A stretch of 53,425 nucleotides of DNA from NCBI GenBank assembly GCA_938040995.1, contig CALHZT010000017.1, positions 1 through 53,425 on the forward strand, written 5' to 3'. Shown here piece by piece: positions 3,464 through 18,005 of the stretch (its first letter is position 1; every line of letters starts with the position of its first letter). The position numbers were made by a program, and so were the translations under genes. This stretch comes from an uncultured Pirellulaceae bacterium (GTDB lineage: Bacteria > Planctomycetota > Planctomycetia > Pirellulales > Pirellulaceae). The notes under the pieces were generated by a model, which saw only the letters and a program-made list of their open reading frames with translations, did no database searches and was not told the DNA's origin.

Positions 3464-6400
3464 TTGATAGTTCGGTGCCTTGACGTAGCCCCTGGAATGC
3501 TTCTACTTGATAGCATGAACATTGCACTTCAGGACTGCAGCGCCCCATGGGTAACGGACGCACCGACACACCAGGCTACAGTACTAAAAGACCATTGGTT
3601 GCGTGCCGAGTGCACCGCGCTAACGTGGGCTCGTCAAGCCTTTCAAATTGGCAACGAGGAAATTGACGGGAACCACCTGACCGAACTGTCTTCCCACCTT
3701 CTACCGCTGGTGTTCGATACCGGGATTCATCAACGGCTGGCAAGTTTTGTAGAAGGTCAGGCTAAGCGAGCCACTCGTGGCGAGAAATTGCGTCAACGCG
3801 CGATGGATCAACTCTCGGGCATGATTCATGCCATTCTCGCAACAGCAGCGCTTCGCGGCGTTAAGCAAATTGAACCAACCACGGAAGAATTTGACAAAAG
3901 CTCAGCAGCCACAGCAACGCTCAATCTTGAATTTCGTGAACAGGCCAGACAATGCATCGACGCCTATCGACGAGCCTGGGGGCAACTTGACCAGACACCA
4001 TGGCAACCACGAAAGGGTTCCGGATTTCAATCGACTCAATCGAAAAGCCAGACTGACGAGTCAGTTGATACGGATCAAAAAGAAGTAACAGTTGGCGACT
4101 GGTGGCAGGACGCCGAATCGCAACTCACCGATCTTGACATCAGCAACAGTGATTATTTGGTCCTTCGACGTCTGGTGACTTACCTCCTTGGTCACAGCGA
4201 ACTCGACGAAAATAAACACCCTTTAAAAACCGTCCTTGTCGATATTTTTGACAAAGGACACGTTCGAGATGCGTGGATTGACGTGTCCCGGGAAACTCTA
4301 CTGTCAGCGTATATCGACCCTGTTTCGACGGGCCTGACAACCTTCGACGACAACTTGATCAACAGCCTGAAATGGGCGTGGAAGAACAGTTGTACGGAAT
4401 TGCAAACTCAGATTAGCAATGCAGACGACAAAATTTCAACAGCCGCCGTGGTTAGAGTTCGCATGCCGTCCACGGAGCTCTTTTTGCTGGAAGGTGACTC
4501 TGCCAGTGGGCTGCTGTCTTGCGGAATCCTGCTGGCCGCCAAAAAGAAACCAACCTGGATCGATCCCGATTTGACCATTTCGGCCGCCGTCGTGGACGTC
4601 GATGGAAACCTGGGGCCAGTCGGCGGAATAAAGCCCAAGATCGAAGCCTTCAGTGCCGCGGGTGGGCGTCGCATGGTGATTCATCCCGACAACTGGGAAG
4701 AAGCCGCACCAATTGCAAAGAAGTGCCATGTTCGGCTGCTGACGGCTACCGCGCTACAATCCGCACTTGCCCATTCAACCGAAGCCTCATGGAAGTATTA
4801 TGCAATCGAATCCTGGTGTATGCACACGGTTAAGAACTGGGATCGGCTTACCTCAACACCGCCCGAGGGTAACGATGATGATTCACGCTTGTACCATTAC
4901 GTGCCTCACCATTATTCGTGGTTAAAGGATGGATGTGAACCATCAGAATCGAGCGCACTGCCTGCCAAAAACAATCAATCTGGCGAACCGGAAAAAGCCG
5001 ACAACCACTTCCAACCTGTCGCTGCCCCGGACGACGATGAATCGGCAGAACTAACCAAACTGCTTCTGGAACATCGGTACGTCTGCCTGGCGGAGGACTC
5101 CGGAGCGGGCAAGTCGGTTTTCACACAACGAGTCCAGGCCTTTCTTTCCACCCCGGAAGTATGGCATACGTTTTTTGGCGGTCGCCCCGTACTGTCTTTG
5201 CGTTTCGAAGCTGGTCGTTCCGCCTGGCCTGCGGATTTTGCAAAAGGGGGATTGCAGCAGGCGATCGCCACCGAAATTGCACCATTCGTCGATGAAAGAA
5301 ATGTCGATGAACTGTCCAGCTGGATTTTGGAAACTGGCCGGGTGTGCCTGATTCTTGATGCTCTGGACCAACTGAGCAACGATGAACTGATTCAATCGCT
5401 CTGCGAATTTCTGGCAACCAATAAGAAAAATGCACACCCTTGCCGCGTCATTCTCACCGGACGCCTCAAGGCGATTCTGGAATCGAAACGACTGATGTCA
5501 GCCGCTCCCTGGAAACATGGACGGGTGGACGGATTCTCGATCCAACAGCAGTATGAACTTCTTAACCGGCGGCACCCGAAAATTCTTCCAGACATTGAAG
5601 ATCCCACGGAACCCGATGCCATTAGGTCGGCCTTTGAAGCCCATCTGGTGTCGAGTTACGACGACGCAGCAGACCTGCTGCAGGTTCCAGTTATCCTCAG
5701 CCTGATTCGCGAGCTTTATGCGGATCGTATCTGGCGAGGCAACCAGGGCAAGCTTCAGCCGTTTCGCAATCGGGCGGAACTCTACGTTCAGGTTCACGAA
5801 AAACTGCTGACATCTGCCTGGAGCAAGAACACTGGCACAGAACCGCCCGTCGAAAAGAGTATTCGTTGGGGGCAGATTCTGGGGGCAGTCAGCTATCAAA
5901 TGATGCTCGACAAGAACCTGGGGTACTCCGTCACGGGGAAACGTGCTGTTGGAAACTTGAAGATCAAAGTTAAAAAGCGCGTATCTCCGGAGATTACGGC
6001 CGAGGATTGGGAGGAGATTGAGCAACTCTCCCTGTGGACACGACGCAGCACCATCGAATCAGCTGGCGAGGATTCCTGGGGATTCAAACACCGGGGCATG
6101 ATGGAGTTTTATTGCGGTTTACACCTGGCGGCAAATTCGCAACCTGAATGGCGGCGGGTACAGACCGACGACGATGGTAAGGAGATTGATCTTCGTTGTG
6201 GCGATGCGGATTTGCCAGCGACGATTCACGACCGCGAATGGTATTGGCCTTGGCGTTTTGCCGCAGAAATGACCGATGAACAGATCATTGGAAGCGAACC
6301 CATCCTGGCGGCGTCAATGGCAGAGCTCTTCCACCATCGACACGACCAGCGTCGCCCCACCGAATTGATCTACCGCTTTTGGCATCGATTGGAGGTCGAT

Positions 6401-7321
6401 CTTTTTCTACTGCGTCAACTGGGTTTACGTCAGCCACAAGAGGGCTCGATCACGGACGAGATGCTGCTCGACGACGGTCGCAAACGCGTTCTTCCCGATG
6501 CCAGTCTGCTACTGTCGGTATTCCGGCAGGGTCATCTCGCCGATGGAACCAGGGTCCCGATCGACGACCATCCGGAGCTGAAAGAATTCAAAAACACATT
6601 TTGCCGCTGCCCGCCGGAGGGGAAGGAAATCGTTAGTTGGATGGGGGGAAAAGAAATCGAGACCCCTTACTTCGATGAGAAACCTCGCCACAAGGTAAGG
6701 TTACCTGCATTCGAACTATCGGATGCACCAGTCACGCGCGCTCTGTTTCGCAGTTTTGACCCTTCCTGGGAAATCAGATTCCTGGATTGGAGCGAATTCC
6801 CCAAATCGGACGACGGTCCCGCGAATTTCGTCAACTGGTATGATGCCTTTTGTTTCGCAAAGCTTCTTGGAGAACACTATGGCCTGCCGGATGAATGCCA
6901 ATGGGAAGCTGGCTGTCGGGCGGACACCGAATCCGCATACTGGTTTGGAGACAATTCGGAACTCCTTTCGAACCATGCCTGGACGGGATCCAACGCAAAA
7001 GGCCCTGAAAGCGTAAGAGCAAAGGAACATTTCAACGATTGGGGGCTGTCCGACATGCACGGTAACGTGTGGGAGTGGACATGGGATTGGTACTCGGAAG
7101 CCTGGTACCGAACTCAAACATCTAACATCGGCGACATTCGCGAAGAGGATAGCGGGCCCCCACGCGGCTCTTCTCGCGTTTGCCGGGGCGGGTCGTGGGC
7201 TGACCTCAATCCCAGGGTCTTGCGCTCCGGTTTCCGCAACTACGGCAGACCCGATGATCACTACGGCCTTGTTGGATTTCGAGTATGTCGTCGTTTCGTC
7301 GCGTGTCCCAATCGTCCTTAG
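3464..7321 (+). CDS. DGR target 1: Lon-like protease / NACHT-type NTPase / FGE-sulfatase (C-type lectin) protein
   Basis: A 1285-aa cytoplasmic multidomain protein. Residues about 1-300 are unassigned. Residues about 330-410 look like the Lon protease domain: Ser346 in EGDSASG and Lys390 in GGIKPK, 44 residues apart (Ser679 and Lys722 in E. coli Lon, 43 apart). Residues about 535-900 form a NACHT/STAND-like NTPase with Walker A GAGKS (Lys550) and Walker B LILDALDQ (Asp632). Residues about 1043-1285 are an FGE-sulfatase fold (GNVWEW, RGGSW, GFRVC). VR1 encodes the last 50 or so residues, just before the TAG. The start is a TTG at 3464; ATGs at 3497 and 3515 are alternatives. avd, TR and RT follow on the same strand. 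I infer a sensor whose diversified lectin-like end controls NTPase assembly and proteolysis. Confidence 0.85.
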   Translation: MIVRCLDVAPGMLLLDSMNIALQDCSAPWVTDAPTHQATVLKDHWLRAECTALTWARQAFQIGNEEIDGNHLTELSSHLLPLVFDTGIHQRLASFVEGQAKRATRGEKLRQRAMDQLSGMIHAILATAALRGVKQIEPTTEEFDKSSAATATLNLEFREQARQCIDAYRRAWGQLDQTPWQPRKGSGFQSTQSKSQTDESVDTDQKEVTVGDWWQDAESQLTDLDISNSDYLVLRRLVTYLLGHSELDENKHPLKTVLVDIFDKGHVRDAWIDVSRETLLSAYIDPVSTGLTTFDDNLINSLKWAWKNSCTELQTQISNADDKISTAAVVRVRMPSTELFLLEGDSASGLLSCGILLAAKKKPTWIDPDLTISAAVVDVDGNLGPVGGIKPKIEAFSAAGGRRMVIHPDNWEEAAPIAKKCHVRLLTATALQSALAHSTEASWKYYAIESWCMHTVKNWDRLTSTPPEGNDDDSRLYHYVPHHYSWLKDGCEPSESSALPAKNNQSGEPEKADNHFQPVAAPDDDESAELTKLLLEHRYVCLAEDSGAGKSVFTQRVQAFLSTPEVWHTFFGGRPVLSLRFEAGRSAWPADFAKGGLQQAIATEIAPFVDERNVDELSSWILETGRVCLILDALDQLSNDELIQSLCEFLATNKKNAHPCRVILTGRLKAILESKRLMSAAPWKHGRVDGFSIQQQYELLNRRHPKILPDIEDPTEPDAIRSAFEAHLVSSYDDAADLLQVPVILSLIRELYADRIWRGNQGKLQPFRNRAELYVQVHEKLLTSAWSKNTGTEPPVEKSIRWGQILGAVSYQMMLDKNLGYSVTGKRAVGNLKIKVKKRVSPEITAEDWEEIEQLSLWTRRSTIESAGEDSWGFKHRGMMEFYCGLHLAANSQPEWRRVQTDDDGKEIDLRCGDADLPATIHDREWYWPWRFAAEMTDEQIIGSEPILAASMAELFHHRHDQRRPTELIYRFWHRLEVDLFLLRQLGLRQPQEGSITDEMLLDDGRKRVLPDASLLLSVFRQGHLADGTRVPIDDHPELKEFKNTFCRCPPEGKEIVSWMGGKEIETPYFDEKPRHKVRLPAFELSDAPVTRALFRSFDPSWEIRFLDWSEFPKSDDGPANFVNWYDAFCFAKLLGEHYGLPDECQWEAGCRADTESAYWFGDNSELLSNHAWTGSNAKGPESVRAKEHFNDWGLSDMHGNVWEWTWDWYSEAWYRTQTSNIGDIREEDSGPPRGSSRVCRGGSWADLNPRVLRSGFRNYGRPDDHYGLVGFRVCRRFVACPNRP
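7162..7316 (+). repeat. DGR variable repeat VR1
   Basis: 155 bp aligned without gaps to the TR at 7761-7915. I count 16 substitutions in the variable core, every one at a TR adenine (for example AAC AAC AAT becomes GAC CTC AAT, and AAC AAC AAC becomes AAC TAC GGC). The only other difference is C to T near the 3' end (7312 versus TR 7911). The invariant GC-rich 3' part (about 7270-7316) would be the IMH. This is the signature of adenine-specific mutagenic retrohoming. Confidence 0.97.
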
Positions 7322-7365
7322 CACTCTGAGATCCTGCAATCTGATATCTGCCCCTCTGACCTCTG

Positions 7366-7384
7366 GCGAAGGCGCAGCCTTCGC
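7366..7384 (+). promoter_or_regulatory. Post-VR hairpin of VR1 (DGR target recognition element)
   Basis: Perfect 8-bp stem GCGAAGGC / GCCTTCGC with a 3-base GCA loop, 50 bp after the end of VR1 and 27 bp before avd. The same hairpin and its flanks recur after VR2 (14117-14135) and after the VR remnant (9226-9244). In the Bordetella phage DGR a hairpin downstream of the IMH promotes target recognition; the same role is inferred here. A transcription terminator is less likely, because no T-run follows directly. Confidence 0.75.
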
Positions 7385-7411
7385 GCAAAAATTTTCCTGG
7401 GAGATTGACAC

Positions 7412-7759
7412 ATGGCATCAGCCAATACACCCCTCTTTGTAAAAACGCATGATTTTACGGTGTGGATGTTCACCCATACGCAGCGATTCCCGAAAAACTT
7501 TCGTCAAAGTTATACCCTTCGCCTCGAAAACGCATGTCTGCAGTTCGAGGAAGATATTGTGATCGCCAATCAACTGCGAGCAGAACGGCGAATTGCCCAG
7601 TTGGAATTGGCAGATGCCCGTCTGGCCACACTGCGAAATTTGCTTCGTTACACGCTTGATTTCCGTCTACTGGGTAGTCGGCAATTCGAATTTGCTGCAA
7701 AATCTGTCGATGAGCTTGGGCGTCTATTGGGCGCGTGGCTCAAGGTGACGAACCGCTAA
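7412..7759 (+). CDS. avd: DGR accessory protein Avd
   Basis: A 115-aa helical protein matching the Avd family (four-helix bundle that pentamerises and binds the DGR reverse transcriptase and template RNA). Family hallmarks are the N-terminal PLFVKTHDF, a FPKN..R segment, the TLRNLLRYTLDFRLL helix, and the C-terminal VDELGRLLGAWLK. The ATG at 7412 has a GGGAG about eight bases upstream. It lies between target 1 and the TR, a standard DGR order, and the TR begins two bases after its TAA. Avd is basic and would hold the RT on the TR RNA during adenine-mutagenic cDNA synthesis. Confidence 0.92.
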   Translation: MASANTPLFVKTHDFTVWMFTHTQRFPKNFRQSYTLRLENACLQFEEDIVIANQLRAERRIAQLELADARLATLRNLLRYTLDFRLLGSRQFEFAAKSVDELGRLLGAWLKVTNR

Positions 7760-7760
7760 C

Positions 7761-7915
7761 ACGCGGCTCTTCTCGCGTTTGCCGGGGCGGGTCGTGGGCT
7801 AACAACAATCCCAGGAACTTACGCTCCGGTTACCGCAACAACAACAGACCCGATAATCACAACAACAATGTTGGATTTCGAGTATGTCGTCGTTTCGTCG
7901 CGTGTCCCAACCGTC
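7761..7915 (+). repeat. DGR template repeat TR
   Basis: The donor copy for both variable repeats. Read in the VR frame it encodes eleven AAC/AAT asparagine codons grouped as ANNNPRN, YRNNN and DNHNNN. AAY codons are typical of TRs, because mutating the first two positions samples many residues without making stop codons. It is not itself part of a credible gene: avd stops at 7759, and the open frame running through the TR has no start context and no homologue that I recognise. Homology to the VRs ends at about 7915. Confidence 0.97.
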
Positions 7916-8020
7916 ATCAACCCCGCCCGATGCTGTGGCCTACGACGTGTACACCCAGCCTGCGCCAAGAGGACGATACGGTTTGTTTCCAGAGTGGTGT
8001 AACGCCGCCAAAGCCGCGGA

Positions 8021-8065
8021 GCGGGGGATAACTTCATTCTGGAAGCTATCTCCCGCATTTTTTTT
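8021..8065 (+). terminator. Intrinsic-terminator-like hairpin between TR and RT
   Basis: The arms GCGGGGGATA (8021-8030) and TATCTCCCGC (8047-8056) pair with one mismatch. The loop adds a CTTC/GAAG pairing, and eight consecutive T residues follow (8058-8065). It could end the template RNA and so lower RT expression, or be a structural part of the DGR RNA. It ends just before the RT ribosome-binding site (AGGA, 8067-8070). Confidence 0.6.
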
Positions 8066-8078
8066 CAGGACCTGAACC

Positions 8079-9200
8079 ATTCCCCGACAATACGCACAAC
8101 TTTGGAGCAAGGTCCATCACTGGGACAATTTGTTGCTGGCCTATCGACGATGTCGTCGACGCAAGCGATGCAAATTTGCTGCTGCTGACTTCCACGAAAA
8201 CTGGGAATCCAACCTTATTGAAATCCAGCAGGCCCTCGAGTCCGGTGGCTATACACCGGGGAAATATCATCACTTCCAGGTTTTTGAGCCCAAGAAAAGA
8301 AAAATCAGTGCCGCGCCTTTTCTGGATCGCGTCGTACATCACGCCCTTGTAAACATCCTTGAGCCAGTTTTTGAGCGACGGTTCATTTTTGATAGTTATG
8401 CTTGCCGCCGTGGAAAAGGGACACATCGAGCCATATTGCGTGCCCAGTCATATATGCGGCAGCATCCCTTTTATTTGAAAACCGACATTGTGAAGTTTTT
8501 TCCCAATGTCGATCACAAAGTGCTGATGTCGGTTATTGGCAATACGGTATGTGATGAAAGCGTTCTGGCGCTCGTCAGGATTATCCTCAAAAGCGGTGTG
8601 GGCATTCATGACGACGTTGCGCCATGTCGGTTGTACCCCGGTGATGACCTTCTGTCGCTCACGCGACCTCGTGGATTACCGATTGGGAATCTCACCAGTC
8701 AGTTCTTCGCCAACGTCTTACTCGACCCAATCGATCATTTCATCAAGGAGCAACTTCGGGTCCCGGGCTACGTACGTTACGCAGACGACCTTCTGCTCTT
8801 TGGACCATCAAAATCATTTCTGTGGGACACCCACACGCAGCTTGTGGAAAAATTTGGCAATTTTCGATTGTCCCTACACCCAAACAAGACGGTCCTCAAC
8901 CCAACCTGGCGAAAAATGAACTACCTTGGGTTTTCTGTTTCTACAAACGGACGAAGGCTGACGCAAGACGCCCTCCGACGATGGAATCGGCGACTGCGAA
9001 AACAAAAGTGGCTCGCGAAGCGGGGCAAACTGGCGCCGCAAGATGTGTCACGGTCGCTGAACGCGTGGTCGGCTCACGCCGACTTTGCCAATACCATTGG
9101 TGTTCGCAAAGCACTGTTTCACCGAACGGCGGTTACGTACTGCGCCCCAGAACAAGGGACGATAGAGGCAAAGTCCCCGGATGATGATGTTAAAAGGTGA
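8079..9200 (+). CDS. DGR reverse transcriptase
   Basis: A 373-aa retroelement reverse transcriptase of the DGR clade. Visible motifs are FEPKKRKISAAPFLDRVVHH (finger region), KTDIVKFFPNVDH (motif with catalytic Asp), RGLPIGNLTSQFFAN (the DGR-type I/L-G-x-x-x-S-Q motif 4), YVRYADDLLLF (catalytic YADD) and NYLGF. I place the start at the ATT at 8079, eight bases after AGGA at 8067-8070, because it restores the conserved N-terminus QLWSKVHHWDNLLLAYRR. A TTG at 8130 would cut into it, and an in-frame TGA at 8073 limits extension. Together with Avd it copies the TR RNA into cDNA with errors at adenines, which then replaces VR1 and VR2. Confidence 0.93.
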   Translation: MPRQYAQLWSKVHHWDNLLLAYRRCRRRKRCKFAAADFHENWESNLIEIQQALESGGYTPGKYHHFQVFEPKKRKISAAPFLDRVVHHALVNILEPVFERRFIFDSYACRRGKGTHRAILRAQSYMRQHPFYLKTDIVKFFPNVDHKVLMSVIGNTVCDESVLALVRIILKSGVGIHDDVAPCRLYPGDDLLSLTRPRGLPIGNLTSQFFANVLLDPIDHFIKEQLRVPGYVRYADDLLLFGPSKSFLWDTHTQLVEKFGNFRLSLHPNKTVLNPTWRKMNYLGFSVSTNGRRLTQDALRRWNRRLRKQKWLAKRGKLAPQDVSRSLNAWSAHADFANTIGVRKALFHRTAVTYCAPEQGTIEAKSPDDDVKR

Positions 9201-9223
9201 TACTAAATCACGCCAAGTCTTTT

Positions 9224-9320
9224 GCGCGAAGGCTGCGCCTTCACCAGAGGTCAGATAACAGATTGCAGGATCTCAGAGTGCTAAGGACGATTGGGACACG
9301 CGACGAAACGACGACATACT
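9224..9320 (-). repeat. Truncated third VR end with post-VR hairpin
   Basis: Reading the minus strand, 9286-9320 equals the last 35 bp of the VRs and carries the VR-type T, not the TR-type C. It is followed by the same TAG stop and the same roughly 60-bp tail as VR1 and VR2, ending in the hairpin at 9226-9244 (one base in the stem is changed, GCCTTCAC). The variable core and any target gene upstream are gone, and homology stops at 9320. This is either the relic of a lost third target or a copied cassette. The rest of 9201-9400 shows no gene. Confidence 0.88.
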
Positions 9321-9400
9321 GGCAAGCTGGTTCATTGCGGCAGGCCGCCCATTGCTGGCCGAATTCCGAAATTCGTAATCGGTCGCGTCAAAATGCCAAT

Positions 9401-9772
9401 CTAATGAATAGTGTCGATTGAGTCGGGTTCACCATCATCCGGACTGGATAGCGCGGTGGCATTCAACAATTGGTCAGTCGCGGCGAAAATTTGAAATGGT
9501 AAAAATTCCTCAATAGCATGACTTAACAATTGCCAACGCGGGTCCTCATCAACGAGAGCACTCCAGGCTGAGCCGCGAAAGAACTGCTTTAGCTCATTCG
9601 TTGGTCGTGACACGCCATCCCGAATCATTCGTTTGGCATCGCGAATTGCGTCGAATGCAACAAGTCTGTCGCGTGCCAACAATCGTCGCGATTCCTTCGC
9701 AACCCGTTTCGGATCGGTGTTCCCTTTCAGTGCGGTACCGATGGCTCGCAGAATTTCAATGGCGTCGGTCAT
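9401..9772 (-). CDS. Hypothetical protein (island)
   Basis: A 123-aa, mostly helical, charged protein (MTDAIEILRAIGTAL at the start) without signal peptide or membrane segment. The acidic C-terminus DDGEPDSIDT may be disordered. The start ATG at 9772 has only a weak AGAG upstream. It is divergent from the large membrane-protein gene at 10117 and is separated from the RT by the truncated VR. I do not recognise a family. Its place behind a VR remnant suggests it may have been next to a lost DGR target. Confidence 0.55.
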   Translation of the reverse strand: MTDAIEILRAIGTALKGNTDPKRVAKESRRLLARDRLVAFDAIRDAKRMIRDGVSRPTNELKQFFRGSAWSALVDEDPRWQLLSHAIEEFLPFQIFAATDQLLNATALSSPDDGEPDSIDTIH

Positions 9773-10116
9773 GCTCTAAATATACCGCCTCGATTCCCGT
9801 GGCGTGAAGCGGTAGCGCGTTCGCAATTCCGTTTGACGATGGAACCGTAAATGGTAGCCCGTCGTGTGTTCCAGATGGTTTGCGCGTGGGGCACGATTGG
9901 AGCGTTGACCTTGTAGGCCAATTCCTTTGTAAGCCAATTCGAAGGAGCTCGCGCACCATCCATTGCACAGAATTACAAAAAATGTGCATTCACCCTGATT
10001 TTCGCATTCTCCTATGGTTCACCAGTGCGCAGCGCTCCCTGCCATGGCTATTCCAGTTGTGACGAAACGGTTTGTCACGTCACTTTTTCACGGGACTCAA
10101 GCACAGGAGCGAGATA
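9773..10116. other. Gene-free interval with possible decayed coding relic
   Basis: No intact gene is supported. Minus-strand frames hold a short segment (NWLTKELAYKVNAP) that resembles helix-turn-helix regions of recombinases, but it is broken by frame changes and carries no catalytic part. The right end holds the ribosome-binding site (AGGAG, 10105-10109) of the next gene. Confidence 0.3.
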
Positions 10117-12957
10117 ATGTCGCACGAAAATCAGAAACTCAATTCGCAGCAATCCAGGCAGCCGGAAGAGCGTACGCCTCGAAAGCAAGAACCCGGCACT
10201 CAACCAGGGAATTCAGATTCCAACAGTCAACGGAATCAGAAACCAGCGTCGGCCCCAAAGAACAATTCACGGTCGAACGGTAATCGAGTGCCTAATCCGC
10301 CACCGCGACGATTGGCAACAGAGAACGAGGCAAATCAATCGACCTTGATGGCCTACACACGTAAAAAGATCATGGCTTTGGCCATGGCAGTTGGAAACTT
10401 CCTGCGTGAAGTCGCCGATATTGCCGCAACAGATACGGCTGCGCGGCAAAAGGGCGAACGTGCGAAGTGCATGCGAGAGCGACAATCGGCGAATGATCGA
10501 AAAGCTGCCGCACAGGCGAGATTTGAAAAAGCACGGCATCAGGAAAGCCAGCAGCCCCCCCGCATCGCTGAGGGCCGCACTCGCCAGCCGGGGATTATCG
10601 ATCGTTTTGTCGACTTGCTGATGGTATTGACGTTATTCGGGGTACTGTTTGTTGAGAACGGAGCCGCAGCGCAATTGCTTCAGAGCATCGCGGCATTAGG
10701 TGTCACCGACCTGGCAACGGCCCGTACAATCATGATTACGCCGATCGGTATCGGATTTGCGTTCGTGCTGGCAAAGCGACTGATGCCATGGCGGCTGCAG
10801 CGTCGCATCGTTCTGGTTGCCAGTGCCATCCTCGTTACGAGCTTCAGCATCTGGGTTTACGATTTTGCCTCACAGGTTGGACAGGCAGAAGTCGCGGCCA
10901 ACGCCGGTTTCAGCGAATCTGGTGAGGAGGGAACGCCACCTTGGCTGATGTTTGGAGCGATGGTTGCCATGATGGCCACCTCGTCATTCCTGGGTCACGC
11001 CGGCCTGGAATCCTTCTCTGGTCGATTGAACAATTGGGTAACCAACGCGGCACACCAGCAGGCCGTCGATGACATGATGGCCGCTGAGCTTGAGATCAAG
11101 ACCATCGATAAGGAACTCGCAGAGATTGACCGCAGGATGGAAGTGTTGGCCGACGAGAAGAAACAAGCCGTGGCTACCGCAATCGCCTTGTACAAGTCGA
11201 TTAAGCATGCGGCGAACTTCCTGCTGATGGCGACGATCGTGTTGACGTTGATTGGTTGCTCTAGTCCAAATGGCTCGTCCAACGGACCTTTCAAGGCAGC
11301 TAGTAGTCAGTCGGGTGTGTCTCCCGAGCACCGCGTCATTGCGATTTCGCCCAATCTTCCGGAAACCGAATTTAAGGCGGTTAACCAGTCTCTCAACCAA
11401 TCATACGACTGGTTATTGCGGAACGCGGCCATTGGTAGCACGCTGATTATTGTCGACGCCTGGGAAGGTGCTGTTATTGCCCGGCTGGAAGCCGTCGCCG
11501 GCGTCCCGCGAATTCGCAAACAGGCAATGGCGCACGGCGTGGAGTCTGTACGGTCGTACCTGAAGCAGACGAACCACGGCAAGGACGATGGTCGTGTGCA
11601 TCTCCCACGACTGGTACAGACAATTGCCCAGTTGTCACCGACGCCTGCGGATGTCGCGGTGCTTGGGCAGCCTTTGTTTGTGGCCGAATCCGGTGGGGAC
11701 GGGTACTTTTCCATGCTGGATGGCAGGTATCCAACGGATGGATGGTTGTTTCAACCGCCGAACGAAAGCCTGTTCTCGGTTGTCGGACGCGAGCGATTGC
11801 TTAAAGGGCAGTTTTACCACTTCGGTTGGCACAATAACCGGGCGTTTGCCGACGACAACCATCGGCAAGCCGTCTTGAGGTTCTGGCACCTGTACCTGAA
11901 AGAGCAGGGGGGGCTGCTTGTGACGGCTCAACAATCGCTACCGTCGGCCGTTACGTCCAGTGGATTGCGTAACCCCTTGATGCACGGTGTGGCTCGCCGG
12001 GATGAGAAGCCTGCCATGGTCAGCGTGGTATTCGACCCAAATGACAATGACGATCAGAAGATCATCCGTAAGTCGCGGGACAACGTGAACATTCGGCGAA
12101 ACGTCAGTCAAGAACGCAAGAAGAAGGAGCGAACAAACGTCAGCATCAAGCGAACTGGTGGTCATTCCACGCAAAACGAAAGTCGGGATGATGATGTTGA
12201 GGTTCGCCAGCGTGACAAATGGGGAAACCGGGTCGGTTCTTCCGCAGACTTGATTGACGATGGCCAAATGCTCGGCAAGAACATCCTGATGGTTCGGTTG
12301 TTCAATGATGAGAATGTGCGGCAATCACCACTCTGTGCCACGCTGCGGGAGAAAGGGTACACCGTGTCAATAATGGAAGGCCCACTTCCCTCAGCGGGAA
12401 AGTTTGCCAACCGCCTGAACATGATGGACCAGGTCTGGTTGTTTTCATCCAGGGAGTCGCAGGCAATGCCGTCGCAGCATGTCCGGTTGCTGGCAGATCG
12501 ATACCGCAATGGAAAGCTGTCAATCTGCTGCCTGGCAGAGAACAGTCCCTTTACGGCCCAGGCGACGGCGTTGTTTCGGGAGTTGGCTCCCGGGGCAACG
12601 ATTTCGGGCGACTACAAGGGCGAACAGCTCCTTCATCGACGAAATCGTAACCAGCCTGGTTTCGTGGAACATCCCGTCTTTCACAACATTGAAACGCTGT
12701 GGGAGGGCACCACGATTGCCAATATGAAGGGCGGAGGATTGCAACCAGTTTGCTTCGCGTCCAATGGCCAGCCGCTGATTGCCACGTTGGAAAACGGCCA
12801 ATCACGATTCGTCGTCCACGGTGGCTGGACATCGTTTTACAAACAATTCTGGCAGGACGCGGGGGTCAAGCGACTGGCGGTGAACGTGGCCGGATGGTTG
12901 AGTGGCGTATCGAATGGCAAGCAGTTGGCGTCGGTGGCGGCTGACTCCCGACACTAA
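10117..12957 (+). CDS. Large multi-pass membrane protein with C-terminal globular domains (unknown)
   Basis: 946 aa. The start at 10117 follows AGGAG by seven bases; an upstream TTG frame extension is not needed. Residues 1-70 are Gln/Asn/Pro-rich and disordered, and about 85-145 are charged helical. Hydrophobic segments lie near 155-177, 198-213, 225-245 and 275-295. A coiled-coil follows (about 320-370), then a fifth hydrophobic segment ending LIGCSS near 395. The region about 415-640 has alternating strands and helices (STLIIVDAWEG, ADVAVLGQPLFV), possibly VWA-like. The C-terminal 220 residues (NILMVRLFNDENV, RFVVHGGWTSF) resemble a glutamine-amidotransferase-like fold, without a convincing Cys-His pair. 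No family name is assigned. It ends in a strong terminator and precedes the hydrolase gene. Confidence 0.75.
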   Translation: MSHENQKLNSQQSRQPEERTPRKQEPGTQPGNSDSNSQRNQKPASAPKNNSRSNGNRVPNPPPRRLATENEANQSTLMAYTRKKIMALAMAVGNFLREVADIAATDTAARQKGERAKCMRERQSANDRKAAAQARFEKARHQESQQPPRIAEGRTRQPGIIDRFVDLLMVLTLFGVLFVENGAAAQLLQSIAALGVTDLATARTIMITPIGIGFAFVLAKRLMPWRLQRRIVLVASAILVTSFSIWVYDFASQVGQAEVAANAGFSESGEEGTPPWLMFGAMVAMMATSSFLGHAGLESFSGRLNNWVTNAAHQQAVDDMMAAELEIKTIDKELAEIDRRMEVLADEKKQAVATAIALYKSIKHAANFLLMATIVLTLIGCSSPNGSSNGPFKAASSQSGVSPEHRVIAISPNLPETEFKAVNQSLNQSYDWLLRNAAIGSTLIIVDAWEGAVIARLEAVAGVPRIRKQAMAHGVESVRSYLKQTNHGKDDGRVHLPRLVQTIAQLSPTPADVAVLGQPLFVAESGGDGYFSMLDGRYPTDGWLFQPPNESLFSVVGRERLLKGQFYHFGWHNNRAFADDNHRQAVLRFWHLYLKEQGGLLVTAQQSLPSAVTSSGLRNPLMHGVARRDEKPAMVSVVFDPNDNDDQKIIRKSRDNVNIRRNVSQERKKKERTNVSIKRTGGHSTQNESRDDDVEVRQRDKWGNRVGSSADLIDDGQMLGKNILMVRLFNDENVRQSPLCATLREKGYTVSIMEGPLPSAGKFANRLNMMDQVWLFSSRESQAMPSQHVRLLADRYRNGKLSICCLAENSPFTAQATALFRELAPGATISGDYKGEQLLHRRNRNQPGFVEHPVFHNIETLWEGTTIANMKGGGLQPVCFASNGQPLIATLENGQSRFVVHGGWTSFYKQFWQDAGVKRLAVNVAGWLSGVSNGKQLASVAADSRH

Positions 12958-12984
12958 CGGCAACTGAGGAAGCCGAACGCCAAA

Positions 12985-13026
12985 ACAGGCTGCCAGGGAA
13001 TACTCTCTGGCAGCCTGTCTTTTATT
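12985..13026 (+). terminator. Rho-independent terminator
   Basis: Perfect 12-bp stem ACAGGCTGCCAG / CTGGCAGCCTGT (12985-12996 and 13007-13018) with a 10-base loop, followed by CTTTTATT. It lies 28 bp after the stop of the 946-aa membrane protein gene and separates it from the hydrolase gene. Confidence 0.85.
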
Positions 13027-13237
13027 GAACTGAAATCCAGAGTAGGCGGCCCGGGAAATCGGCTTTGCCATCACCACGCTGAATTGTTCCCACTTCAACC
13101 ACCCATTTCGGCGTCCAAATCAGCCTGTCGCACCTCGATTCCTGATTTGTTTTGCCTTCCTTCCAAACCACTCGTGCGCATCCCCCGCCACGATGGCTTC
13201 TTTTTTGGGCACAAATTCCAGACAAAGGAGTGATGAG

Positions 13238-14092
13238 ATGACGAAGCGAGTTGCATTTGTACACGGCGTGGGAAATCACCCTGAACGTGGCAGGCTCAAC
13301 GAACATTGTCGCGAAATGCTGGCCAAGTGTCTTCGCGAAGATTTTGGAAAAGCCGCCAGTCCCAGTGTCGATTCTCTTTATTGGTGCGACATTGCCAATC
13401 GCGAGTTGGGCCGCGAGGATTTTGAAGGATTCTGCGTGGACCAGATCTGCCGTGTATTGGCAGCCAGGCGACTTGCCGTTCGTTCCTCGTGGTCCAGGTA
13501 TCTGCGGTCGGTTGTTGGCAGGGCATTGATCGGGTCACTGGAGCTTGTCAGTTGGACGCCCACACTGGCTGGTATGATGATGCCGGAGTTGGGTCGCTTC
13601 CTGGCCGCTGATGAATTCGCAACAATGGTGCGCCGACGTGTTCGTGAGCCACTCCAGCAATATCTGGAGCAGGGCGACGAAGTCCTTGTCCTTGCACACT
13701 CTTGGGGCTCCGTGATCGCCTACGAATCGCTCGTCGAATTGACTCAGACGTACCGCGGCCCAAATCGTATCCAGTCGTTTATCACGATGGGCAGTCCCAT
13801 TGCCGTTGAATCGGTGAAGCATCGGCTTCTGAACTGGAAGAATCCAGAAAGCCGCTTCCCCCGGCTAATTAAGGAGTGGCACAATATCGCCGATCCTACA
13901 GACGAAGTCAGCCATGACCCCACGGTCTCCGATGACTTTCACGATATGCAAACGACTGGTGCCATCGAGATGATCTCGGATCACCTGATCCAGAATCCGG
14001 CTAGAGCAGTAACCGGCGATCCGCACGATTTGACGGGATATCTCACACATCCTGTCACCGTAAGGCTGGTCGAAGACTTCCTGCGGAACTAG
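13238..14092 (+). CDS. Alpha/beta hydrolase (lipase/PGAP1-like)
   Basis: 284 aa, soluble. The start at 13238 is set by AAGGAG at 13225-13230, seven bases upstream; a longer frame from 13193 lacks a site. The fold is recognisable from VAFVHGVGNHPE (first strand and oxyanion loop, residues 4-15), the nucleophile elbow AHSWGS (Ser155), FITMGSP, an Asp-rich loop IADPTDE (about 230-236) and a late GYLTHP (His about 268). These give a plausible Ser-Asp-His triad. The substrate is unknown. Standing in a DGR island and converging on target 2, it may be an effector that attacks lipids or esters; this is inference. Confidence 0.8.
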   Translation: MTKRVAFVHGVGNHPERGRLNEHCREMLAKCLREDFGKAASPSVDSLYWCDIANRELGREDFEGFCVDQICRVLAARRLAVRSSWSRYLRSVVGRALIGSLELVSWTPTLAGMMMPELGRFLAADEFATMVRRRVREPLQQYLEQGDEVLVLAHSWGSVIAYESLVELTQTYRGPNRIQSFITMGSPIAVESVKHRLLNWKNPESRFPRLIKEWHNIADPTDEVSHDPTVSDDFHDMQTTGAIEMISDHLIQNPARAVTGDPHDLTGYLTHPVTVRLVEDFLRN

Positions 14093-14116
14093 CCAAACGG
14101 TTTGCAAAATTTTTGC

Positions 14117-14135
14117 GCGAAGGCTGCGCCTTCGC
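14117..14135 (-). promoter_or_regulatory. Post-VR hairpin of VR2
   Basis: Same 8-bp stem and 3-base loop as after VR1 (GCGAAGGC / GCCTTCGC), 58 bp beyond the end of VR2 on the minus strand. The tail between VR2 and the hairpin matches the VR1 tail except for two base changes and an 8-bp insertion near the hairpin, so the spacing is 58 instead of 50 bp. Confidence 0.75.
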
Positions 14136-14187
14136 CAGAGAAACAGAGGTCAGAGCGGCAGATATCAGATTGCAGGACCTCAGAGTG

Positions 14188-17100
14188 CTAAGGACGATTG
14201 GGACACGCGACGAAACGACGACATACTCGAAATCCAACATCGCGGCTGAGATTATCGGGTCTGCGGTTGAAGCGGTAACCGGAGCGTAAGACCCTGGGAC
14301 TGAAGCGAGCCCACGACCCGCCCCGGCAAACGCGAGAAGAGCCGCGTAACGGGGCGATCACTTCGTGCCCGTATATCAACGTTCTGCTCCGTTCCCCAAC
14401 TTCCTCCTGGTTTTCTGTCCAGTCGTCGCGATACTCGCTCGACGTCCATTCCCACATATTGCCAATCGTATGCTGCAAATCGAAAGGATTCGCATATTTT
14501 TTATCGGGTGATTCGCTACGACCCAACGAACGGCTTGCGCTGTGGTGACACCGGTCTTCTTCCAGACCACCATTCCACCAACGCGGCCACGAGGTGCCAC
14601 CTCGGGTGAAGAATTCTCGCTCGCTTTCACTCGGCAAGCAATAGATAAAGTTTTCAGAACAATCACAACAGGCAAGCCAGATGCCAGAATAGAAATCCGC
14701 TGCGTGCCAGGTCACACGGTGAACTGGTTGGTCGTCGGAACGACTGCGCCCATCGCGGCTGAAGAAATGAGAAGGATCGAATAACTCGTACTCGGCATTC
14801 GATACACCAAATTTCATCACATCGAGTTTTGGCACCAGGACTAGACGGGCAGGCTTCTCGTCATCCCAAGCTTCATGGTCCGAATCGTCGGACCCCATCC
14901 GGTAAACCCAACCTTCATGGCCCTCAGGAGCGGGAAACAGGTTGTCTGCCGATGCCATGTCAAACTCCGGCGAAGGGCAGGGCAGAAACAACTGCAGGAG
15001 GTTGCCGAACACGTCAAGCTCCGAAGCGCCAAGTTCACCAATAAAACCAGCGCCGAGCGATTGCTGCGCACTCTCCGGCAGCAAGTCCCAGGCGGAACGT
15101 ACCGTCTGGCTGTCTCGATAGCGACGATCAAGGTGTGAACCCAAAACACGGACGAATTCTTCGGCGTTATCGTTTTCGGGCCTCTCCGTTGCTCCCATTC
15201 CTTTATACCGCAAGTCGTCTCGTACCAGCCACCGACAGACATCTACCCACGGGCAGGGGACGGTTGCACCAGTCGTATCATCGGTTTGCCCAAAATGGTC
15301 TTCTCGTATCGCGTCCGCCAAAGTGAACGTGCCACCATAGGCGATCAGCTCGGCAGCAAGACGGTCCCTTTTTTCAACTGCCTTGGTTAGTTTTGTGCCA
15401 CTCGCTTTCTTTGTCAGTTCTTTCTTTGCGAATTCACTTCGCACCGCCGCATCCAGTCGTGACAACGCAAAGCGAAAGACCCAACGCCATTGTTCGCGAG
15501 GCGATTTTGAAATCTCGTGGGTTGCTTCAGGATCGTCCCACGCATGGCCTTCGCGGGCACGAGTTCGCGCTGCGACCATGTCCAGAATCCCACTCAGTTC
15601 GAAGCGCAATTCGTCCGGAGAAAGATAATCCGCCAGCCAGACGCCCGCAAAATATTCCGCGAAAGAGAGGTGACGCCATTGAAGGGAATCATTCTCCTCT
15701 TCCAAAGGGCCGCCGAGCAGGACGCCATTCTGTTTGAGCGTCTCTGCCATTTCTGTGGGGGCATTTCTTTCGTGGAGATACTCACTCAGGATTTCTAACG
15801 TATCGTCATACTGGTCACCTTCTACAAAACCTTCAAATCCGACATTTCGCAGCATATGCCACGCTACAAAGGCGTGAGCTTTCGTCAGCTTTCTCAGATT
15901 GGTCAGCGAGCCCCGACTCTCGCGTGGCACTGAATCCAGGCCCTTGCTCAGAAGACTGTAACTTTTGTTTGACTCGATCGCCTGGTAATACACCCGCTCC
16001 CGGTTATAGAGTGAATCGATCTCATCTTCGGGAATGCTCTGGAGCAAGTGCAGCACCATTGGCACCCGAAAAAACTCGTTTTCGACGCTGTTGCCATCCT
16101 CGATGCCCAATAACTTGCGGAAATGTTCGGCCTTTTCTTTCGTCAGAAACTCATTGACTTGATCGTCGGTCAACAATCCCACCTGACGCTCGTCCCAGGC
16201 TGAGAAACTCGACCGTGAACTCTGGCGGCCAGTAAAGTAGATCGGGCATTGGTCCACATTGCCGTGGCCCTCGAACCACAGCTGAATTTGATCGACTTGC
16301 CCACCGGCTTGATCGTGGGCGTCCAGCAGGTAAACCGCTTTGCCGTTGTCGTGGAGGTATTGCAACCAGTCTTGGACATGTTTCTTTTTGGAGCTGTCCA
16401 GGTGCTTACCGAACTCACTGGCAAGGTTGTTTCTGAATTTCTCGCTATCGTCCCAGGGGCGGCTTGCCAATTTGTCGCGGCGAATTGGCAAGAGGCCAAA
16501 TTTCCCTTCGGCGATTTGCTGTTCGAGGTAAATCAAGAGTGTCGATTTTCCCACTCCGGAATCGGCATAGAGAAATAACCTCGCTGGGCCATCGCCGGGC
16601 CCATGGAATCGTCCCTCGTTGATTTGGCAAAGTTCGTCATCAGAAATGGGAATCCACTTTTCCTGCTCCGATTGCGACGGTTCAACGTCGCCTTTCGCCC
16701 GATCTGGACCCTCTTGTTTAGACTTCAGGATGGGTGACGGAATATAACGCGATTCCGTCGCCGCATTGCATGTTTTGAGCAACGTCTGCCGCGCTTCCTC
16801 AGCCAGCCTCTCGTTGACCTGGGCCGTCATGGCCTCGAATAGCGAAAGCTCTTTGTAGGCATCTTCGAAGTCATCAACCGGCACCAGGCGAACTGTTCCA
16901 AGTTTGTCATCTGGCGTGTCACGTGGTTGCTTCGAGTGGATTGCAATCCGATTTACCGACTTGACCCGTGCAGCTGTCGCCAAGCCACGAATCTCGTCAG
17001 CTAAACACTTCTTGTTTATCTCGCCGACATGATCGATATGAAACGAGGCGGAACGTGGTGTCGCGAATTGAGCAGTTACGGCTGCATTACTGTCCAGCTG

Positions 17101-17994
17101 TTGATTCTGCCGTAGTGCCCGAAGTGCGCACGCTACTGCGACTTCGCCTGATCTTCCGTCCAAAGTCCTGTCTAACAATTTGCCGGTATTTGCATCCTTC
17201 ACTTCAACCCACCATCGAATGTCAAAATCGATACCCTTCGTTTGAAACTGGGGTCGTGTTAGATCGTAACCGATGGCGGCCCACCAGCCATTTTGCAATC
17301 CCTCCTGAAATTTACGCGTCACCTTCTGGCGGAATCCATTCCATGGATGAGGATAAAATGCTCCGATGCCCTGGTCGATTTTCTCCAGATACAACCGGGC
17401 GACGAATCCGAGCGGTTCGTCCTGCTTTGGATTTCTGGTGGCCGACAGTATGTAAGATTGAACTCTGGCTGCAACTTTTTTGGACAAAGTGTCTTCGTAG
17501 AGTACGCCTTGCCACCAGTCGGCGAGGATGCACACATAGGGATTCCAGTAGCCACCTGGTGCGGCATCGGCCAACTTGTTGAACAGATCAATTTGCCACT
17601 GTTCGGTATCAGAAAAAGGCATTGAGTTGATCGCCGCAGACCTCTGGTAGTTTTCGGCGTTTTCGAATCGATGCCCTTCGCTCTCGTTAAAAAACCACTG
17701 AAAATTTGCACGTGCGCTGATCGCGGAATACAGTTTCTCCAGTTGCTCTTCCCCAAGGGCTCCGTGCGGTGGACTAAGAGCGAACTTGCCGAATTGCGTG
17801 AGCAAATCGACCCGTTCGTCGCTGTCGCATATTTCTTGCCAAGAGGGCGAGGACAGTTTGGACAGCAGCCTCGCTCGAGGATCGCTGTTGTCTCGTTGGA
17901 GTTCCGAACGTGCGTTTCGCAGGGAAGAGAAAAGTTGATTTTCGTCCGAAGCAATAAACTCACTCGCAGACGATATCGATTCAATGGAAGTCAT
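14188..17994 (-). CDS. DGR target 2: Lon-like domain / NACHT-type NTPase / FGE-sulfatase protein
   Basis: 1268 aa from the ATG at 17994 (GAGAAG just upstream; a TTG three codons earlier is possible). Same plan as target 1 with strongly diverged sequence. Residues 1-265 are unassigned. Residues about 265-350 are Lon-like, with Ser282 in DGRSGEV; the position of the catalytic Lys reads VGEINKK, with Asn327 where Lys is expected and Lys328/329 next to it, so activity is uncertain. The NTPase has Walker A DSGVGKST (Lys483) and Walker B YLLDAHDQ. The FGE-like domain occupies about 1035-1268 (GNMWEW, RGGSW, GFRVC) and VR2 encodes the last 50 or so residues. It lies on the opposite strand to the DGR, 5 kb beyond the RT, so it is diversified in trans. 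A sigma/HTH-type gene lies directly upstream. Confidence 0.85.
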   Translation of the reverse strand: MTSIESISSASEFIASDENQLFSSLRNARSELQRDNSDPRARLLSKLSSPSWQEICDSDERVDLLTQFGKFALSPPHGALGEEQLEKLYSAISARANFQWFFNESEGHRFENAENYQRSAAINSMPFSDTEQWQIDLFNKLADAAPGGYWNPYVCILADWWQGVLYEDTLSKKVAARVQSYILSATRNPKQDEPLGFVARLYLEKIDQGIGAFYPHPWNGFRQKVTRKFQEGLQNGWWAAIGYDLTRPQFQTKGIDFDIRWWVEVKDANTGKLLDRTLDGRSGEVAVACALRALRQNQQLDSNAAVTAQFATPRSASFHIDHVGEINKKCLADEIRGLATAARVKSVNRIAIHSKQPRDTPDDKLGTVRLVPVDDFEDAYKELSLFEAMTAQVNERLAEEARQTLLKTCNAATESRYIPSPILKSKQEGPDRAKGDVEPSQSEQEKWIPISDDELCQINEGRFHGPGDGPARLFLYADSGVGKSTLLIYLEQQIAEGKFGLLPIRRDKLASRPWDDSEKFRNNLASEFGKHLDSSKKKHVQDWLQYLHDNGKAVYLLDAHDQAGGQVDQIQLWFEGHGNVDQCPIYFTGRQSSRSSFSAWDERQVGLLTDDQVNEFLTKEKAEHFRKLLGIEDGNSVENEFFRVPMVLHLLQSIPEDEIDSLYNRERVYYQAIESNKSYSLLSKGLDSVPRESRGSLTNLRKLTKAHAFVAWHMLRNVGFEGFVEGDQYDDTLEILSEYLHERNAPTEMAETLKQNGVLLGGPLEEENDSLQWRHLSFAEYFAGVWLADYLSPDELRFELSGILDMVAARTRAREGHAWDDPEATHEISKSPREQWRWVFRFALSRLDAAVRSEFAKKELTKKASGTKLTKAVEKRDRLAAELIAYGGTFTLADAIREDHFGQTDDTTGATVPCPWVDVCRWLVRDDLRYKGMGATERPENDNAEEFVRVLGSHLDRRYRDSQTVRSAWDLLPESAQQSLGAGFIGELGASELDVFGNLLQLFLPCPSPEFDMASADNLFPAPEGHEGWVYRMGSDDSDHEAWDDEKPARLVLVPKLDVMKFGVSNAEYELFDPSHFFSRDGRSRSDDQPVHRVTWHAADFYSGIWLACCDCSENFIYCLPSESEREFFTRGGTSWPRWWNGGLEEDRCHHSASRSLGRSESPDKKYANPFDLQHTIGNMWEWTSSEYRDDWTENQEEVGERSRTLIYGHEVIAPLRGSSRVCRGGSWARFSPRVLRSGYRFNRRPDNLSRDVGFRVCRRFVACPNRP
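14193..14347 (-). repeat. DGR variable repeat VR2
   Basis: 155 bp aligned without gaps to the TR. I count 16 substitutions, all at TR adenines (for example AAC AAC AAT becomes CGC TTC AGT, and AAC AAC AAT becomes AGC CGC GAT). It carries the same single 3' T as VR1. The bases outside TR adenines are unchanged, although the host gene is otherwise very different from target 1. This points to recent overwriting by the same TR. Confidence 0.97.
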
Positions 17995-18005
17995 GCTTCT
18001 CAAAA

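What the first reader, a model, noticed from the sequence alone, without database searches (positions are those of the whole stretch)
9224..9320. Orphan VR end and hairpin behind the RT
The last 35 bp of a VR, the stop codon, the tail and the hairpin are present, but the variable core and target are missing. It carries the VR-type 3' base. It may mark a deleted third target, or it may be a captured recognition cassette that could still attract cDNA.
Basis: seen in the sequence. Interest (0 to 1): 0.65.

Follow-up and report, generated by a model that had tools for sequence, protein, structure and literature searches.

The report
Leftover landing site of hypermutation element
Behind the reverse transcriptase of a bacterial hypermutation element lies a bare copy of the signal that marks its target genes, without any gene attached; it is most likely the stump of a lost third target, and comparing it with relatives shows that this signal contains a repeated 8-letter motif that we did not find described.

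Summary
Window 9220-9320 (minus strand) is a free copy of the 3' module of this DGR's targets: 35 nt of VR end with the VR-type IMH base, stop codon, tail and hairpin. Variable core and reading frame are absent. It carries private changes (two substitutions, one 8-nt loss), so it is not an assembly echo of VR1 or VR2. None of 57 related planctomycete DGRs with a mapped VR has such a free module, so it is no conserved part. However, 9 of those 57, plus L133 in the window's own RT clade, have a complete target convergent behind the RT, where the stump lies. Best reading: remnant of a deleted convergent third target, probably inert because no TR homology precedes it. A cassette captured without a target is not excluded.

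The more general result concerns the "tail". It is an array of 7-8-nt pyrimidine-rich units found at targets and not after TRs (lag 8 z = 13 versus -0.3 over 57 loci). It also occurs in five cyanobacterial plasmid DGRs but not in four gamma/betaproteobacterial or phage ones. The window's three copies differ by exactly one unit each (orphan -8, VR2 +8). I found no description of this array.

The parts
9286..9320 (-). Orphan: last 35 nt of a VR (IMH region, VR-type base at 9290)
   Evidence: alignment A1; repeats; 35-nt TR match
9281..9283 (-). Orphan: stop codon TAG in the target frame, not behind any open reading frame
   Evidence: translation of three frames; alignment
9245..9280 (-). Orphan: tail, array of ~8-nt CTCTGA-type units, one unit (8 nt) fewer than at VR1
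9226..9244 (-). Orphan: hairpin, GCA loop; one C to T change leaves 6 contiguous pairs plus G.T plus one pair
   Evidence: only three such hairpins in the assembly at <=1 mismatch
8130..9200 (+). DGR reverse transcriptase (start codon uncertain); its stop lies about 20 nt before the orphan
   Evidence: RVT_1 E 1.2e-20; tree
7760..7915 (+). Template repeat TR
   Evidence: 17 mismatches to each VR, fraction 0.94 at TR adenines
7412..7759 (+). Avd accessory protein
   Evidence: bAvd E 2e-14
3464..7321 (+). Target 1, FGE/C-type-lectin C-terminus (start uncertain)
   Evidence: FGE-sulfatase E 3e-35
7161..7316 (+). VR1
7322..7384 (+). Tail array and 8-bp GCA-loop hairpin of target 1 (hairpin 7366-7384)
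14188..18003 (-). Target 2, STAND-like ATPase with FGE C-terminus (start uncertain)
   Evidence: FGE-sulfatase E 9e-23 and a sub-threshold AAA_22 match
14193..14347 (-). VR2
14117..14187 (-). Tail array (one 8-nt unit more than VR1) and hairpin of target 2 (hairpin 14117-14135)
9401..9772 (-). Small ORF upstream of the orphan on the same strand; no relatives found, no target domain
   Evidence: 0 Pfam and 0 PADLOC families; no match in 97 other genomes

Best explanation
The feature is the stump of a third DGR target gene that stood convergent to, and directly behind, the reverse transcriptase. A deletion removed the gene and the variable core of its VR up to 35 nt from the VR end. Left behind was the 3' recognition module: IMH, stop codon, iteron-like tail array and hairpin. 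In intact targets this module marks the site where TR-derived cDNA is pasted (shown for IMH plus hairpin in BPP-1 by Guo 2011; inferred here). At the stump the RT-Avd-RNA complex may still recognise the module. Pasting cannot normally be completed, because no TR-like sequence lies upstream for the 5' side of the exchange; so it is inert or at most a weak decoy (inferred). Shown: sequence, boundaries, private changes, absence from relatives, and occupancy of the same slot by whole targets in other DGRs. Inferred: that this genome once had that target.
For: Matches the target 3' ends and not TR: VR-type IMH base, stop, tail, hairpin. A complete target in minus orientation behind the RT is found in 9 of 57 relatives with mapped VR (L077, L078, L099, L108, L148, L153, L161, L162, L163). 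It is also found in L133, same RT clade (support 100/99), with hairpin and tail starting about 25 nt behind the RT stop, against about 20 nt here. It is also found in Acaryochloris plasmid pREC1, a different phylum. No other relative has a free module (0 of 57). Signs of relaxed constraint: the hairpin lost a pair and the tail a unit. The three copies differ by private changes with VR1 central, as expected for three separate targets.
Against: No other fragment of a third target is recognisable between 9321 and 10071. Of the seven other RTs in the clade only L133 has a target there; L005, L073, L074, L131, L132, and L130 within the 573 nt available, do not. L133 is not the window's nearest relative. 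The about 62-nt perfect identity with VR1 means the event is recent, and no close relative with the intact state is held. The assembly is a draft (425 contigs, 86.5% complete), so linkage across a repeat could be wrong.
Confidence: 0.55

Rival explanations
1. Captured module: IMH, tail and hairpin were copied behind the RT by recombination or aberrant retrohoming and never belonged to a target at this place. It would be a seed from which a new target could arise.
For: In 8 of 15 multi-target loci the DNA shared by two targets starts at the VR 5' end (within 13 nt) and runs 32-139 nt past the VR 3' end, into the tail, although the tail is outside TR; so VR plus tail behaves like a unit. In BPP-1, IMH plus hairpin is sufficient to target a foreign gene (PMC3240598, passages). 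The orphan shows the module without a core.
Against: No second example in 57 relatives. The other 7 of 15 loci share coding DNA upstream too, as in ordinary gene duplication. The neighbouring ORF ends 80 nt upstream and has no lectin-like end.
Confidence: 0.25
2. Scar of a rearrangement involving target 2: target 2 once stood directly behind the RT, and a block (about 9321-14105, three ORFs) came in with or between duplicated modules, leaving the left copy truncated.
For: Orphan and target-2 module are direct repeats 4.9 kb apart in the same orientation. Both abut the stop of a convergent gene: the RT stop lies about 25 nt before the orphan hairpin, and the ORF ending at 14092 lies about 25 nt before the target-2 hairpin.
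Against: The orphan is closer to VR1 than to VR2 (tail 97% with one 8-nt gap against 94% with a 16-nt gap). VR1 and VR2 share a few more bases beyond the hairpin than the orphan does. The block has the same GC as the rest of the window (0.547).
Confidence: 0.12
3. The module is kept for a function of its own: transcription end of the RT gene, a decoy that titrates the RT complex, or inverted arms that let Avd-TR-RT flip.
For: The position directly behind the RT stop and the inverted-arm geometry. Few changes so far.
Against: No terminator-like site in 9100-9450. The hairpin is weaker than in both targets. Not conserved in any of 57 relatives. Use of the arms for flipping was not tested.
Confidence: 0.08

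Closest known systems
Diversity-generating retroelement target 3' end (IMH plus hairpin/cruciform), Bordetella phage BPP-1 type (Guo et al. 2011, PMC3240598, passages seen)
   Same: VR end with an IMH that differs from IMH*, followed outside TR by a short GC-rich hairpin on the target side only. [quoted passage not shown]
   Different: Here there is no VR core and no target. In this group the hairpin starts about 50 nt after the VR end (4-34 bp in Guo's set) and often has a 3-nt GNA loop instead of 4-nt GRNA. An array of 7-8-nt units fills the gap.
Multi-target DGRs with shuffled target N-termini in multicellular bacteria (Dore et al. 2024, PMC10907252, passages seen)
   Same: Several targets per locus, C-lectin ends on STAND-like proteins, degraded redundant DGR parts, duplication and recombination of target 3' regions.
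   Different: That paper names transposons and MITE-like repeats as agents. Here the leftover is exactly the 3' recognition module, and the three ORFs between orphan and target 2 showed no transposase in Pfam.
Remnant targets in Treponema denticola DGR systems (PMC4891356, one passage seen)
   Same: Leftovers of DGR parts persist in genomes.
   Different: There target genes remain in strains lacking a complete system; here the RT core remains and only the 3' end of a target.

Membership tests
Diversity-generating retroelement (the locus) | DGR-type reverse transcriptase | tested here: met
   RVT_1 E 1.2e-20; groups with RTs most of which lie beside TR/VR pairs
Diversity-generating retroelement (the locus) | Accessory protein Avd | tested here: met
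   bAvd E 2e-14
Diversity-generating retroelement (the locus) | TR/VR pair differing almost only at TR adenines | tested here: met
   fraction 0.94 of 17 mismatches for VR1 and for VR2
DGR target site (the orphan) | IMH of VR type at the 3' end | tested here: met
   35 nt identical to VR1 and VR2, VR-type base at 9290
DGR target site (the orphan) | Hairpin/cruciform downstream | tested here: met
   present but weakened, 6 contiguous pairs against 8
DGR target site (the orphan) | TR homology upstream for 5' integration (8 bp minimal, 19 bp efficient in BPP-1, PMC3240598) | tested here: not met
   longest exact match 8 nt, 249 nt upstream, in 500 nt scanned
DGR target site (the orphan) | Open reading frame through the VR | tested here: not met
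   TGA just upstream in the VR frame
DGR target site (the orphan) | Retrohoming activity | not testable with these tools
   needs reads or a homing assay

The most novel reading that the evidence does not exclude
The target 3' end of this large group of cellular DGRs is a self-contained recognition module made of IMH, an array of 7-8-nt repeats and a GNA-loop hairpin. The array is a binding site for the retrohoming complex or a host factor, and the module spreads between genes as a cassette that turns the gene in front of it into a new target. The orphan would be such a cassette caught without a gene.
Probability: 0.2. Interest if true: 0.8.

Novelty: new variant of a known kind. Interest (0 to 1): 0.5.

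Why it matters
How DGRs gain and lose target genes is raised as a question in recent work (PMC10907252, passages). A bare target 3' end beside an apparently intact Avd-TR-RT core shows which piece can exist by itself and gives a natural test substrate. The periodic array between VR and hairpin is target-specific and shared by planctomycete and cyanobacterial DGRs. If it is a recognition element, it would explain how a DGR tells its targets from its own template over and above the small IMH difference, and it would matter for moving these DGRs into laboratory hosts.

Tried and rejected
Transcription terminator of the RT: no terminator-like site. Known RNA family: none reached threshold in 7000-14500. 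Repeat element of the genome: the hairpin core occurs only three times at up to one mismatch. Assembly echo of VR1 or VR2: rejected because of private changes. Even if the linkage to the RT were wrong, a VR end joined to non-VR sequence must still exist somewhere in the reads (inference). N-terminal piece of a third target in ORF 9401-9772: no domain, no relatives, no match in the DGR loci. The structure model is poor (mean pLDDT 60), so no fold search was made. Tandem-unit indels as a general rule: the 8-nt steps are clear in the window, but indels between tails in other loci are mostly 1-6 and 10 nt, so this is not general. Viral contigs gave only three distant RTs (25-26% identity). Bordetella phage BIP-1 was fetched but my script found no TR/VR pair in it, so it served as no control. 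Prosthecochloris L182 was left out of the cyanobacterial periodicity test, because its TR/VR match ended before the VR end.

Full report
What is there. The window holds a complete DGR. Target 1 (3464-7321, +) carries VR1 at its 3' end, followed by Avd (7412-7759), TR (7760-7915) and RT (8130-9200). A second target lies at 14188-18003 (-) with VR2. VR1 and VR2 each differ from TR at 17 positions, 94% of them TR adenines. Behind the RT, on the minus strand, 9320 down to 9220 repeats the 3' end of the targets: 35 nt of VR end, stop codon, tail and hairpin. The whole assembly contains only four places with this sequence: orphan, VR1, VR2 and the 35-nt end of TR. Upstream of 9320 all similarity to VR stops, and the target frame meets a TGA within a few codons.

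How the copies relate. VR1 and VR2 modules are 97% identical over 79 aligned tail bases with one 8-nt gap. Orphan and VR1 are 97% over 66 with one 8-nt gap. Orphan and VR2 are 94% with a 16-nt gap. Changes are private to VR2 or to the orphan, and VR1 looks closest to the common form. The orphan's C to T change in the stem leaves 6 contiguous pairs, against 8 in both targets.

Relatives. RT relatives came from one scan of genome contigs and from searches of 98, 392, 241 and 397 whole genomes (sets overlap). 82 relative loci were read, of which 57 had a TR/VR pair that my script could map. In each of the 57 I searched the locus with the last 35 nt of VR plus 160 nt. Only the window has a module copy without a VR core. 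One candidate (L083) proved on extension to be a complete second target with an 801-codon frame. 55 of the 57 have at least 500 nt behind the RT. Searching whole genomes for stray modules was possible for the window's genome and for G392, whose four matches are two VRs and two TRs. The other four genomes were searched with G392's module and gave nothing, which says little because the module diverges fast.

The slot behind the RT. A complete target on the minus strand behind the RT occurs in 9 of 57. L133, whose TR/VR pair the script missed, has FGE-type target 3' ends with the same kind of tail. One of them starts with its hairpin about 25 nt behind the RT stop. L133 belongs to the same 8-member RT clade as the window (100/99). 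The other six members have none there: L073, L074 and L005; L130, L131 and L132, L130 with only 573 nt to look at. Outside the phylum, the Acaryochloris plasmid pREC1 has a convergent FGE target 36 nt behind the RT gene. So whole targets do arise or stand exactly where the orphan lies, in several lineages. That makes a lost target the simplest reading, but the window's nearest relatives do not show it directly.

The tail. In 56 loci (one tail each) self-matches at 7 and 8 nt exceed dinucleotide shuffles with z = 12.5 and 12.8, with harmonics at 15 and 16. A rerun with 57 loci and controls gave z 11.6 and 13.0 for the tail, 0.0 and -0.3 after TR, -2.4 and -1.1 upstream of VR (56 loci), and -1.5 and -0.4 at 200-258 nt past VR. 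The unit is CTCTGA-like in the window's clade and near kin, and TTTTACC- or CCCTTT-like elsewhere. Five cyanobacterial plasmid DGRs show it as well (lag 8 z 5.1 against simple shuffles). Four gamma- and betaproteobacterial or phage DGRs do not, with lag 8 z 0.9 and a lone lag 7 z of 2.4. Those four have GATA-loop hairpins 28-33 nt after VR, in keeping with the GRNA loops of Guo et al. Among 56 planctomycete tails (the window's and L133 included) 29 have a perfect stem of at least 6 with a 3-4-nt loop (4.25 expected from shuffles), and 17 of these 29 loops are GNA. The orphan lost, and VR2 gained, exactly one 8-nt unit relative to VR1. In other loci tail indels are mostly not 8 nt, so I do not claim a general unit-wise turnover.

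The module as a unit. In 15 multi-target loci (the window included) the DNA shared by two targets always runs past the VR 3' end into the tail (32-173 nt), although the tail is not in TR. In 8 of 15 it starts at the VR 5' end within 13 nt, and in 7 it includes 57-624 nt of upstream DNA. The targets of the window share 38% protein identity over the last 250 residues, VR included. Either the tail is homogenised between targets or it was carried along when a gene acquired its VR. Multi-VR DGRs have been attributed to gene duplication (PMC3521204, passages).

Mechanism. In BPP-1 the IMH plus the hairpin suffice to direct retrohoming to a foreign gene. [quoted passage not shown] Removing the inverted repeat severely but not completely impairs repair in E. 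coli (PMC12875486, passages). By these rules the orphan has the recognition part and lacks the completing part: the best TR match in 500 nt is 8 nt, at 249 nt distance. So it should be inert or a weak decoy. This is inference; nothing here measures activity.

Print search. Searches for DGR with hairpin, inverted or direct repeat, iteron, tandem repeat, stem-loop and cyanobacteria terms listed no paper whose title or shown abstract describes a repeat array between VR and hairpin or a free target module. I read passages of eight papers only. The library lacks most subscription journals.

Limits. The genome is a draft of 425 contigs, 86.5% complete, and no second genome of its genus appeared among the relatives. 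25 of 82 relative loci had no mapped TR/VR pair and were not scored for free modules (L133 among them was read by hand).

Noticed in passing
L177, L178, L179, L181, L183 (cyanobacterial plasmids) and most planctomycete loci, first ~55 nt after the VR 3' end: Target-specific array of 7-8-nt pyrimidine-rich units between VR and hairpin; absent after TR.
   Followed up: partly
window 3464-5000 (target 1 residues ~342-440): Target 1 has a Lon-protease-like stretch (1z0e E 1.9e-4; PADLOC CARF-Lon E 7.6e-4) before its ATPase and lectin-like parts, which suggests a protease-armed sensor.
   Followed up: partly
L161 and L162, end of the RT frame: The RT reading frame appears to run into the tail of the convergent target in antisense (frames end at 10658 and 10450; L162 tail homology reaches 92 nt past the VR end).
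   Followed up: no
L133 9271-9548: FGE gene end that resembles the VRs but lacks the tail and has a different base in the IMH; no TR was found by script in this locus.
   Followed up: no
L073 and L074 (G392:C1 near 0.49 and 7.47 Mb): Two nearly identical complete DGR loci in one single-contig genome, with different VR sequences.
   Followed up: no
window 10072-12957: 961-aa protein with hydrophobic N-terminal stretches, no Pfam family at the cut-off, and a partial relative in only one of 97 other genomes searched (50% over residues 708-946).
   Followed up: no
G000 contig C87:5785-6573: A second, distant reverse transcriptase (31% identity) in the same genome.
   Followed up: no
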